Origin: Chelatococcus sp. YT9
GTDB taxonomy: Bacteria; Pseudomonadota; Alphaproteobacteria; Rhizobiales; Beijerinckiaceae
Length of the DNA: 64,000 nucleotides
Assembly: GCF_018398315.1 (NCBI RefSeq)
Contig: NZ_JAHBRW010000001.1
Coordinates: 2,612,501-2,676,500, forward strand
Direction of reading: 5' to 3'
Part shown: positions 2,684-5,374 of the stretch, in pieces
Position numbering within the stretch: the first letter of the stretch is position 1
Layout: each line of letters begins with the position of its first letter
Translations under genes and position numbers: made by a program
The notes under the pieces: generated by a model
Databases searched by the model: none
Seen by the model: only the letters and a program-made list of their open reading frames with translations
Told to the model about the DNA's origin: nothing

Positions 2684-3028
2684 TTAGGGATAGCCGTTGC
2701 GCGACTTGACGGCGGCTAGGATCGCGAGCGCCTGGCCATCGTTGCCCTGGGCGCAGGCGCTGGCAGCGCGGCTGACGTCCGGAATCATGGATTTGTAGAC
2801 GGAGGGGCTCAGATGGCCGACCTGAACGTCGCTATCGATGATACGGCGGAAGCCGAGGATCGGCGCGCCACAGCTCCGGCTCGCCAGGCTGGCGCTGTCA
2901 AGCGGGGCTGCGAGCACACCGTTTGAGCTGTCCGCGTAAGCTTGGGCAGCGGGAGGGTTCTGCGCGGTCGTGTTGCAGGCGGCCAAGCCCAACAGGAGTG
3001 GCACGGCGAAAGTCAAACGGCTCAACAT
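2684..3028 (-). CDS. Small putative lipoprotein
   Basis: This 114-residue protein begins MLSRLTFAVPLLLGLAACN, a lipoprotein signal whose lipobox LAAC predicts lipidation at Cys18. An in-frame ATG at 3073 would add 15 residues before the signal and is less likely. The mature part is short, Ala/Ser-rich, has two further cysteines (SCGAP and SACAQG) that could form a disulfide, and shows no domain recognised here. It converges with the Nudix gene, with only about 20 bases between the stops. Function unknown. Confidence 0.72.
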   Translation of the reverse strand: MLSRLTFAVPLLLGLAACNTTAQNPPAAQAYADSSNGVLAAPLDSASLASRSCGAPILGFRRIIDSDVQVGHLSPSVYKSMIPDVSRAASACAQGNDGQALAILAAVKSRNGYP

Positions 3029-3242
3029 CGCTATCCCCGGAGTCTGATTCCATCCTGTCGCCAGCTTTTTCATTTGTCACGGCCGGGTCAACCGGATGAT
3101 TGATGACTTGTCAGCGCCTATTCGTCTCGGTTACAACCATTTGAGCGATCGTCGTTGACGCGGAGTGTCCGCGGCTGCGTTGAAAAGGGATTGAGGTTCA
3201 GTGACTGCGATAGCTTCAGGGATTGCGCAGGGGACCGCGGCC

Positions 3243-3323
3243 ATGTCCGCAGTCGCTCTCGACGCGCGTCTTGAGCTGTCTTCGCGCCTGAGCCTTATTG
3301 GCCTCCTCCTTAGCCGCCCCTGA
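3243..3323 (+). CDS. Candidate leucine leader peptide upstream of leuA
   Basis: A 26-codon frame starts at ATG 3243 behind an AGGGG element at 3229-3233 and stops at TGA 3321-3323. Eight of its 26 residues are leucine, and three successive Leu codons (CTC CTC CTT, 3303-3311) lie close to the stop, after the run LSLIG. The reading frame can be extended upstream to a GTG at 3201, which is a possible longer form. The stop codon lies inside the first arm of a 12-bp RNA stem (3317-3328 with 3345-3356). Leucine-rich leaders before leuA are the classic arrangement for ribosome-sensed attenuation. Translation is inferred, not shown. Confidence 0.6.
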   Translation: MSAVALDARLELSSRLSLIGLLLSRP

Positions 3324-3403
3324 GGGCCGGCCGGGCTTTGCCTGGGCCTTCAGGGGATGTGACGGCCACCGCGATCGAGCGCCGCCCCCTGTGAGAAGCG
3401 CTC
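3317..3403 (+). promoter_or_regulatory. Candidate leuA attenuator: mutually exclusive RNA stems
   Basis: Arm A (3317-3328, CCCCTGAGGGCC) pairs over 12 positions with arm B (3345-3356, GGCCTTCAGGGG), with one G-U pair. The distal part of B (CAGGGG, 3351-3356) can instead pair with arm C (CCCCTG, 3386-3391). A further stem joins GAGCGC (3377-3382) and GCGCTC (3398-3403), which encloses C. A therefore competes with C for B, as expected if a ribosome on the leader peptide decides the fold. No T-run follows any of the stems, so a classical intrinsic terminator is not evident. Control might act through Rho or through access to the leuA ribosome site (AAGGA, 3413-3417). Confidence 0.5.
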
Positions 3404-3425
3404 CTCAAGCTCAAGGACGAACAAA

Positions 3426-4985
3426 ATGAACTCTCCGGTATCCGCGTCCGACAAGGACCGCGTCGTTATCTTCGATACTACCCTGCGTGACGGCGAGCAG
3501 TGCCCCGGCGCCTCGATGACGCCCGAGGAAAAGCTCGAGGTCGCCGAAATCCTCGACACGATGGGCGTCGACATCATCGAGGCGGGCTTCCCGATCGCCT
3601 CCATCGGCGACTTCGATTCCGTCGTGGAGGTTGCCAAGCGGACGAAGAATGCGGTCGTTGCGGGCCTCGCTCGCGCCATTCCGGGCGATATCGCCCGCGC
3701 CGGCGAGGCCGTGCGCCACGCTCGGCGGCCGCGGATTCATACTTTCGTGTCGACGTCGCCGATCCATCTGGCGCATCAGATGCGCAAGAGCGAGGAAGAG
3801 GTGCTCGAGATCATCACCGCGACGGTGACGCAGGCGCGCAACCTCGTCGATAACGTCGAGTGGTCGGCTATGGATGCCACCCGCACTCCGATCGCCTATC
3901 TTCTGCGCTGCGTGGACGCGGCCATCAAGGCGGGCGCCACGACGATCAACCTGCCCGACACGGTGGGCTACGCGACGCCGGATGAATATCGCGCCATGTT
4001 CCGCACCATCCGCGAGACGGTCGCCGACGCGGACAAGGTGGTGTTCTCGGTGCATTGCCATGACGACTTGGGCCTCGCCGTCGCCAATTCATTGGCGGGC
4101 GTCGAGGGGGGCGCGCGCCAGGTGGAATGCACCATCAACGGCCTCGGCGAGCGGGCCGGCAATGCCGCGCTGGAAGAGATCGTGATGGCGATCAAGACCC
4201 GTGCCGACGTGTTGCCCTATACGGTCGGGGTCGATACGATCATGCTGACGCGGGCCTCCAAGCTCGTCTCGGCCGTGACCTCCTTCCCGGTGCAGTACAA
4301 CAAGGCCATCGTCGGCCGGAACGCCTTCGCCCATGAGAGCGGCATCCACCAGGACGGCATGCTGAAGGAATCTTCCACCTACGAGATCATGACACCGGAG
4401 TCCGTAGGTGTGTCGAAGACCTCGCTGGTGATGGGCAAGCATTCCGGCCGCCATGCCTTCCGCGATAAGCTGAAGGCCCTGGGCTATGAGCTGGGCGACA
4501 ACGCTCTGGAGGACGCCTTCCGCCGCTTCAAGGACCTCGCTGACCGCAAGAAGGATGTCTATGACGAGGACATCGAGGCCCTGGTCGATCAAGGCATCCT
4601 GACGGCGCATGATCGCGTCAAGCTGGTGTCGCTCTCGATCATCGCGGGGACGCGCGGGCCGCAGCGGGCCACCATGAAGCTGGACATCGGTGGGGAGGTT
4701 CGCACCGAGGAGGCCGAGGGGAACGGGCCCGTTGATGCCACCTTCAACGCCATCAAGGCGCTGGTGCCACATGACGCCAAGCTCGAGCTCTACCAGGTGC
4801 ATGCGGTGACCGAAGGTACGGACGCCCAGGCGGAAGTCTCGGTCCGCCTCGACGCCAAGGGCAGCCCGGTGACGGGTCGCGGCTCCGATCCCGACACGCT
4901 GGTCGCTTCGGCCCGGGCCTATCTGTCGGCCCTGAACAAGCTTCTGGCGCGCGGCGAGCGCCTGCACGCGCAGGCTGCGGAGTAG
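3426..4985 (+). CDS. leuA: 2-isopropylmalate synthase
   Basis: This 519-residue enzyme condenses acetyl-CoA with 2-ketoisovalerate, the first committed step of leucine synthesis. The DRE-TIM barrel begins with DTTLRDGEQCPG at residues 17-28, and the metal ligands sit in SVHCHDDLGLAVAN near residue 207. The linker region shows HESGIHQDGMLK, and the C-terminal 120 or so residues have the LeuA regulatory domain that binds leucine. Length is normal for the long bacterial form. An AAGGA ribosome site lies 8 bases before the ATG. The gene is monocistronic here, with a leader upstream and a strong terminator downstream, so both allosteric feedback and leader control by leucine are plausible. Confidence 0.97.
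   Translation: MNSPVSASDKDRVVIFDTTLRDGEQCPGASMTPEEKLEVAEILDTMGVDIIEAGFPIASIGDFDSVVEVAKRTKNAVVAGLARAIPGDIARAGEAVRHARRPRIHTFVSTSPIHLAHQMRKSEEEVLEIITATVTQARNLVDNVEWSAMDATRTPIAYLLRCVDAAIKAGATTINLPDTVGYATPDEYRAMFRTIRETVADADKVVFSVHCHDDLGLAVANSLAGVEGGARQVECTINGLGERAGNAALEEIVMAIKTRADVLPYTVGVDTIMLTRASKLVSAVTSFPVQYNKAIVGRNAFAHESGIHQDGMLKESSTYEIMTPESVGVSKTSLVMGKHSGRHAFRDKLKALGYELGDNALEDAFRRFKDLADRKKDVYDEDIEALVDQGILTAHDRVKLVSLSIIAGTRGPQRATMKLDIGGEVRTEEAEGNGPVDATFNAIKALVPHDAKLELYQVHAVTEGTDAQAEVSVRLDAKGSPVTGRGSDPDTLVASARAYLSALNKLLARGERLHAQAAE

Positions 4986-5298: not shown

Positions 5299-5370
<72 letters not shown>

Positions 5371-5374
<4 letters not shown>

What the first reader, a model, noticed from the sequence alone, without database searches (positions are those of the whole stretch)
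3201..3425. Leucine-rich leader peptide and competing RNA stems upstream of leuA
A 26-codon frame with 8 leucines, including three in a row, ends inside the first arm of a 12-bp stem whose partner arm can instead pair with a third segment before leuA. The layout fits ribosome-sensed control by leucine. No T-run terminates any stem, so the mechanism may differ from the E. coli type, perhaps through Rho or by masking the leuA start.
Basis: partly seen in the sequence, partly recalled or inferred. Interest (0 to 1): 0.6.

Follow-up and report, generated by a model that had tools for sequence, protein, structure and literature searches.

The report
Leucine-sensing leader RNA before leuA
Ahead of a leucine-making gene sits a short leucine-rich reading frame and an RNA hairpin that are widely conserved in one class of bacteria, and sequence comparison suggests that the leucine codons themselves cover the gene's ribosome-binding site unless a ribosome starved of leucine is parked on them.

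Summary
A 26-codon frame with 8 Leu (ATG 3243, TGA 3321-3323) ends in the 5' arm of a 12-bp stem (3317-3328 x 3345-3356). The same leader and hairpin (P2) lie upstream of leuA in 48 of 50 order-level loci read, in 208 of 249 genomes of the order by model, and in 86 of the 141 class genomes (of 289) with a clear LeuA. All 55 hits among 299 genomes drawn from the phylum were in that class. P2 covaries strongly and has no Rfam 15 match. Instead the Leu-codon segment is complementary to the leuA ribosome-binding region in a genome-specific way (172 genomes, z -12.4; held-out 50 genomes, z -4.7; control segments far weaker or null). In the window this helix (P1) is 3307-3314 x 3409-3417 and covers the Shine-Dalgarno AAGGA. 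Best explanation: translational attenuation, in which a ribosome stalled on Leu codons masks the anti-Shine-Dalgarno strand and frees leuA; with ample leucine P1 shuts leuA off. It works like the actinobacterial LEU element, with a different core. There are no expression data. I found no description in the papers I could search.

The parts
3243..3323 (+). leader ORF, ATG start, 26 codons, 8 Leu, TGA stop
   Evidence: relatives
3201..3242 (+). possible N-terminal extension of the leader (GTG 3201, preceded by GAGG); which start is used is unknown
   Evidence: the same GTG is present in L002-L004
3303..3311 (+). terminal Leu codons CTC CTC CTT (codons -6 to -4 before the stop), the presumed sensor
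   Evidence: held-out loci: codon -6 Leu in 60 of 60; codon -4 CTT in 56, CTA in 3, TTA in 1 of 60
3307..3314 (+). P1 5' strand UCCUUAGC, anti-Shine-Dalgarno
   Evidence: fold of 3291-3437: pairing probability 0.94-0.99 for the four Shine-Dalgarno bases printed; genome-specific complementarity
3317..3328 (+). P2 outer stem, 5' arm, holding the leader stop codon
3332..3344 (+). P2 inner 5-bp stem and loop (3332-3336 x 3340-3344), after bulge GGC 3329-3331
3345..3356 (+). P2 outer stem, 3' arm
3409..3417 (+). P1 3' strand GCU-c-AAGGA, containing the leuA Shine-Dalgarno AAGGA (3413-3417), 8 nt before the ATG
3426..4985 (+). leuA, 2-isopropylmalate synthase, 519 aa
   Evidence: NCBIfam PRK00915.1-4 853 bits (cut-off 729) and TIGR00973 680 bits (cut-off 598.7)

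Best explanation
A leucine-responsive, ribosome-operated translational attenuator of leuA. The last Leu codons of the leader peptide double as an anti-Shine-Dalgarno strand. When charged tRNA-Leu is plentiful, ribosomes pass through and leave the leader, hairpin P2 folds, and the freed Leu codons pair with the leuA Shine-Dalgarno (P1), which keeps leuA translation low. When charged tRNA-Leu is scarce, a ribosome dwells on the Leu codons, P1 cannot form, and the leuA start is open. P2 probably folds the spacer so that the two P1 strands meet. Shown here by sequence: conservation of the leader and P2, pairing of P2, genome-specific complementarity of Leu codons and ribosome-binding region, lack of a T-run on P2. 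Inferred: that the leader is translated, that leucine supply changes ribosome position, that P1 forms in the cell and that it lowers leuA translation.
For: P2 covariation: 11 of 17 pairs with changes on both sides, 92.0% of cells paired against 83.7% in shuffles, 47 distinct order sequences; on 98 class-wide sequences 13 of 17 pairs and 90.8% against 76.8% (that alignment was fitted to the model and holds one false positive, L148). Leu codons: codon -6 is Leu in 60 of 60 held-out loci with all four CTN synonyms; upstream of codon -4 Leu is high in frame 0 only. P1: duplex energy of Leu segment -24..-5 with the 50 nt before leuA is -14.51 for own pairs against -12.21 when leaders are swapped within groups, z -12.4, 0 of 5000 permutations, 172 loci; other leader and arm segments z -2.5, 0.4, -0.5. 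Held-out 50 loci: z -4.7, 0 of 3000; controls -0.3, -0.9, 0.5. Contiguous matches of 7 bp or more: 81 of 172 against 44.4 expected, held-out 30 of 59 against 16.6. Masking the Leu codons raises computed openness of the leuA Shine-Dalgarno region from 0.41 to 0.55 on average, in the window from 0.25 to 0.51 (folds starting 30 nt before the leader stop). No terminator-like site and no T-run on P2.
Against: No expression, ribosome-profiling or probing data. In one search, 39 of 172 loci go the other way by more than 0.02, CGA-type leaders gain little (0.43 to 0.48), a ribosome at the stop codon also opens the site (0.52), and own leaders close the site only slightly better than swapped ones (0.409 against 0.451, p 0.002). 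Those folds leave out the leader upstream of -30. In the window P1 dominates only if the fold starts near the Leu codons: with longer 5' ends other leader segments compete for the Shine-Dalgarno (3270-3277 pairs with 3408-3415), and from 3160 on the site is mostly open, 0.6. 91 of 172 loci lack a 7-bp contiguous P1, and at 8 and 9 bp the held-out excess lies within the permuted range. Related genomes are not fully independent although near-duplicates were removed. Leu segment x leuA coding region also shows a weak signal (z -2.7). T-rich stretches somewhere in the spacer are commoner than in shuffles (40 against 23.4 of 172). 55 of 141 class genomes with LeuA had no element by the model.
Confidence: 0.62

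Rival explanations
1. Transcriptional attenuation without an intrinsic terminator: the ribosome's position or the translation of leuA decides whether Rho terminates between the leader and leuA or inside leuA.
For: No terminator-like site in the window's leader; an untranslated spacer, median 91 to 125 nt from leader stop to leuA start by group; the spacer is slightly C over G, 0.299/0.268. Rho polarity could also follow from translational shut-off, so this may coexist with the best explanation.
Against: The C excess is small and no rut-like signal was shown. It does not by itself explain why Leu codons are complementary to the ribosome-binding region of their own genome.
Confidence: 0.17
2. 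Classical attenuation: the P2 3' arm switches between the 5' arm and a third segment near leuA.
For: In the window CAGGGG 3351-3356 can pair with CCCCTG 3386-3391; the same letters occur in L002 and L003.
Against: Over 209 loci the 3' arm has no excess complementarity downstream (mean z -0.10), nor over 214 upstream (-0.36), and no T-run follows P2.
Confidence: 0.05
3. A sequence-specific arrest peptide (TnaC-like; recalled) that senses free leucine and stalls at Pro-stop.
For: Codon -1 is CCC in 148 of 148 parsed leaders, partly by the way they were parsed, and the stop is TGA in 139.
Against: In 9 of 60 held-out loci the arm reads CCTC, which makes codon -1 Leu. L121, L124, L134 and L144 have CCTC with GAGG in the other arm, L100 and L146 CCTC with GGGG. 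In L087, L109, L153, L217, L224 and L226 the stop codon is gone from the arm and the hairpin is still there. The constraint is on RNA pairing, not on the C-terminal residues.
Confidence: 0.04
4. P2 is a protein-binding or RNA-processing element and the Leu-rich frame is only part of its context; P1 is a side effect.
For: P2 is more strictly conserved than P1; a 3-nt bulge between its two stems recurs in the order alignment; P1 is imperfect in many genomes.
Against: Leu is preserved with synonymous changes in one frame, and P1 complementarity repeats in held-out loci.
Confidence: 0.12

Closest known systems
LEU element of Actinobacteria upstream of leuA (Seliverstov et al. 2005, PMC1262725; parts 1 and 2 of 3 of the text read)
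   Same: Leu-codon run in a leader ORF; a base stem formed by the Leu codons with the leuA Shine-Dalgarno box; same gene
   Different: The core there is a proposed pseudoknot; here it is a simple hairpin that usually holds the leader stop codon, and pairing of its interior with spacer or upstream leader was not supported. The authors thought control by leader translation unlikely because of mutational data; here synonymous Leu conservation speaks for it. No homology was shown.
Enterobacterial leu operon attenuator (transcription attenuation; passage in PMC6123439, rest recalled)
   Same: Leu-containing leader peptide upstream of leuA; ribosome position presumed to be the signal
   Different: No conserved alternative pairing of the hairpin arms and no T-run terminator on the hairpin here
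pheL leader of E. coli ending CCC-UGA (passages of the frameshifting review PMC5009743)
   Same: Leader whose last codon is CCC before UGA
   Different: There it belongs to transcription attenuation of pheA, with frameshifting called incidental; here the +1 frame has no conserved end
erm-type translational attenuation (recalled; only listings and abstract starts seen)
   Same: Leader stalling opens a sequestered start of the next gene
   Different: Signal there is an antibiotic; the masking strand is a separate arm, not the regulatory codons themselves (recalled)

Membership tests
Classical transcription attenuator (leuL type) | short ORF rich in codons of the pathway's amino acid | tested here: met
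Classical transcription attenuator (leuL type) | intrinsic terminator (GC stem plus T-run) before the gene | tested here: not met
   window: none in 3060-3430; relatives: T-run right after P2 in 5 of 172 against 3.0 expected; other stems in the spacer of relatives were not scanned
Classical transcription attenuator (leuL type) | conserved alternative pairing of hairpin arms | tested here: not met
Actinobacterial LEU element | leader ORF with Leu run upstream of leuA | tested here: met
Actinobacterial LEU element | Leu codon run pairs with the leuA Shine-Dalgarno box | tested here: met
   as complementarity only:
Actinobacterial LEU element | internal pseudoknot | tested here: inconclusive
   P2 interior with spacer z -1.36, with upstream leader z -1.49; the published pseudoknot sequences were not compared
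Actinobacterial LEU element | common descent with the actinobacterial element | not tested
   Actinobacteria were not searched; within the phylum all 55 hits of 299 genomes lie in the window's class
Translational attenuator | stalled leader ribosome raises translation of the downstream gene | not testable with these tools
   only computed accessibility
Any Rfam 15 family | match at gathering score | tested here: not met
   window and 14 loci: only tRNAs matched; 3000-3600 at E up to 5: two matches far below their gathering scores

The most novel reading that the evidence does not exclude
A class-wide, uncatalogued RNA device of Alphaproteobacteria in which one stretch of a dozen or so nucleotides is both the leucine sensor (codons) and the repressor (anti-Shine-Dalgarno), with no terminator and no protein factor. 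It is tied to the function rather than to one gene lineage, since it also stands before the distantly related yeast-type 2-isopropylmalate synthase, and it parallels the actinobacterial LEU element as an independent or very old solution.
Probability: 0.5. Interest if true: 0.75.

Novelty: new variant of a known kind. Interest (0 to 1): 0.6.

Why it matters
It would give the leucine pathway of a large bacterial class a mechanism of control that differs from the textbook terminator switch. It would also put the unclear leuA leader of Actinobacteria in a new light: the same trick, codons that are also the anti-Shine-Dalgarno, seen in a distant group with genome-by-genome complementarity behind it. 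The prediction is directly testable with paired mutations, and a covariance model makes the element easy to annotate.

Tried and rejected
Intrinsic terminator on P2: none. Pro-stop arrest peptide: contradicted by Leu-stop leaders and by leaders whose stop has left the arm. Programmed frameshift at CTT-A, suggested by the conserved letters: the +1 frame ends at scattered places and reaches leuA in 36% of 172 loci, the +2 frame in 23%, so no conserved product. Pairing of the P2 interior with spacer or upstream leader: not supported. Rfam match: none at gathering score. Literature: ten searches gave no description of an alphaproteobacterial leuA leader in their listings (long lists were capped) or in the passages read; Vitreschak et al. 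2004, cited in several of them and the paper most likely to mention one, turned up only as a citation and was not read. Of PMC10117765, PMC4117421, PMC5009743, PMC8632094, PMC2573895, PMC6123439 and PMC2659441 only found passages were seen.

Rows dropped: of the 50 order-level loci read (those with the best LeuA matches among 60 genomes, the window's own included; G041 and G051 were not fetched), L039 and L050 had no recognisable leader. For the 148-leader table I left out loci that my pattern did not parse (L087, L109, L121, L124, L134, L144, L148, L153), four more (L081, L100, L146, L154) and six duplicates; all of these but L081, L148 and L154 were looked at. L148 has no LeuA match and lies by secY- and adk-like frames (recognised by eye): a false positive. 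Of 80 named loci 73 fitted the pattern; of the 7 misses L196, L217, L224 and L226 hold variants by eye and L240, L242, L245 do not. The patterns asked for 2 or 3 Leu in the last nine codons, or for CCC before the stop, so counts are conditional on that. The held-out set was anchored on model hits only, though the models hold those columns too; one of its 60 loci (L304) had no leuA motif and 9 more were removed as near-duplicates. P1 was found by looking at several segments, hence the held-out repeat. The LeuA motif used to find gene starts is recalled.

Full report
What is there. The window is part of a 6.74-Mb genome (G000:C1:2612501-2676500); its named neighbours are Alphaproteobacteria, and the nearest named LeuA in the collection searched is that of Chelatococcus caeni, 88% identical (records very near the window may be left out there). 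leuA (3426-4985) is a standard bacterial 2-isopropylmalate synthase. The stop codon lies in the 5' arm of hairpin P2: 3317-3328 x 3345-3356 (12 bp), a 3-nt bulge GGC, and 3332-3336 x 3340-3344 (5 bp). The 48-nt hairpin stretch is more stable than all 200 shuffles (z -3.03); the 225-nt region as a whole is not unusual (z -0.35).

Conservation. Of 50 loci with leuA read from the window's genome and its relatives in the order, 48 have a Leu-rich frame that runs into the same kind of hairpin, and two (L039, L050) do not. A covariance model from these 48 (R1) finds 208 of 249 genomes of the order and 77 of 289 drawn from the class, in nearly all of them one hit. A broader model (R2) finds 93 of 289 in the class and 55 of 299 drawn from the phylum, all 55 in the same class (the answer does not list how many of the 299 lie outside the class). 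In the class set 141 genomes have LeuA at E <= 1e-100; the element stands 28 to 415 nt before the LeuA match in 86 of these and was not found in 55; 86 of the 96 hits are in that position. Among named records 73 of 80 leuA loci fit the pattern, and 4 of the other 7 hold variants. Of 88 loci fetched by model hits or their coordinates (L081-L168), 87 contain a LeuA-like match at E <= 1e-3; the exception, L148, is a false positive.

The element follows the function. In L249 and L250, and in six loci of one family (f64: L257, L258, L259, L261, L262, L263), the gene behind the leader is not the usual LeuA: L249 and L250 score above the cut-offs of the yeast-type synthase models PRK03739.1 and TIGR00970, and the other six look alike by eye.

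P2 is an RNA structure. Over 47 distinct order sequences 92.0% of cells pair (shuffles 83.7%), 11 of 17 pairs change on both sides, and slid controls drop to 58% or less. Over 98 class-wide sequences 13 of 17 pairs change on both sides (24 of 500 shuffles reach that count) and 90.8% of cells pair against 76.8% (an alignment fitted to the model, L148 included). Even the near-invariant base changes in step: CCCC/GGGG becomes CCTC/GAGG in L121, L124, L134 and L144 (L100 and L146 have CCTC/GGGG), and CCCT/AGGG in L196 and L257. In the CCTC loci the last codon is Leu, and in L087, L109, L153, L217, L224 and L226 the stop codon has left the arm, so neither Pro nor the stop in the arm is required.

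The leader looks translated. In 172 dereplicated loci Leu is frequent at codons -12 to -4 in frame 0 (0.29 to 1.00) and not in the other frames, apart from the overlaps within CTTA and CCCTGA (loci partly chosen for Leu). In 60 held-out loci codon -6 is Leu in 60 (CTT 31, CTC 14, CTG 11, CTA 4) and codon -4 is CTT in 56 and CTA in 3. Codon -5 is mostly Leu in the window's order (81 of 86) and Arg CGA in 36 of 62 leaders from other orders.

Which alternative pairing is conserved. Hairpin arms have no more complementarity to the leader or to the spacer than shuffles, whereas the Leu segment has an excess towards the spacer (mean z 0.74, 27% of loci above 1.65) and not towards the upstream leader. 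About half of the best matches start within 20 nt before the leuA start (0.51 and 0.46 of the two main groups), and they change in step with the Shine-Dalgarno: TCCTTCGA with TCGAAGGA in L122, GGTCCTTCGA with TCGAAGGACC in L241, TCCTTCTC with GAGAAGGA in L006, and by eye TCCTAATC with GATTAGGA in L134 (letters). Own pairs against leaders swapped within groups: -14.51 against -12.21 kcal/mol, z -12.4, 0 of 5000; control segments -2.5, 0.4 and -0.5; Leu segment with leuA coding sequence -2.7. A sliding scan peaks at -20..-13 (z 6.5); segments upstream of -24 reach at most 2.4 and those in the hairpin between -1.6 and 1.9. Repeated on loci fetched afterwards, 50 without near-duplicates: z -4.7, 0 of 3000; controls -0.3, -0.9 and 0.5. 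Runs of at least 7 bp: 81 of 172 against 44.4 expected (largest of 2000 permutations 58), held-out 30 of 59 against 16.6 (largest 25); at 8 and 9 bp the held-out excess is within the permuted range.

In the window P1 is UCCUUAGC 3307-3314 with GCU-c-AAGGA 3409-3417; the fold that begins at 3291 pairs the four printed Shine-Dalgarno bases with probability 0.94-0.99. With longer 5' ends other leader segments compete, notably CTTGAGCT 3270-3277 with AGCTCAAG 3408-3415, and from 3160 the site is mostly open, 0.6. Masking the Leu codons as a stalled ribosome would, in folds that begin 30 nt before the leader stop, opens the region before the start from 0.41 to 0.55 on average over 172 loci (112 up, 39 down by more than 0.02), in the window from 0.25 to 0.51; a ribosome at the stop codon gives 0.52; own leaders close it a little better than swapped ones, 0.409 against 0.451.

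Mechanism. I conclude, at about 0.62, that this is translational attenuation with the Leu codons as anti-Shine-Dalgarno. Steps that rest on sequence are the leader, P2, P1 complementarity and the lack of a T-run on P2 (T-rich stretches elsewhere in the spacer are commoner than in shuffles, 40 against 23.4 of 172). Translation of the leader, dependence on leucine and the effect on leuA are inferred. Rho-dependent termination may act alone or with it.

Comparison. The actinobacterial LEU element has the same layout of Leu run and base stem with the leuA Shine-Dalgarno box (PMC1262725, parts 1 and 2 of 3 read), but a pseudoknot core, for which the test here gave no support. I file the present element as working like it, not as a member. 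It is not in Rfam 15 at the thresholds used. No description was found in ten searches of the held library, which lacks most subscription papers; Vitreschak et al. 2004 was not read.

Noticed in passing
L249 207-1928, L250 236-1975; L257-L259, L261-L263: The same leader and hairpin stand before a distantly related, yeast-type 2-isopropylmalate synthase, so the regulatory element seems to stay while the enzyme type behind it differs.
   Followed up: partly
L226 594-705: A Hyphomicrobium leader holds three near-copies in tandem of a segment like CTTACAGGCCCCTCT, with the stop codon moved downstream.
   Followed up: no
window 3270-3277 and 3408-3415: A second Leu-containing leader segment (CTTGAGCT) is a perfect 8-bp complement of the leuA ribosome-binding region and competes with P1 in longer folds.
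   Followed up: partly
class-wide leaders, codon -5: Outside the window's order the middle Leu codon is often replaced by Arg CGA (36 of 62 parsed class leaders), giving Leu-Arg-Leu; in several of these P1 extends over CTTCGACTTA. Whether Arg supply is also read is open.
   Followed up: partly
window 2684-3073, minus strand: A divergent 129-aa frame with a lipoprotein-like signal (LLGLAAC, by eye) starts about 130 nt upstream of the leader's GTG.
   Followed up: no
window 5299-5374: tRNA-Lys (CTT anticodon) gene downstream of leuA.
   Followed up: no
order genomes of family f24 (for example G058, G103, G138, G168): Large genomes of one family had no model hit; in G058 only distant LeuA-like matches were found.
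   Followed up: no
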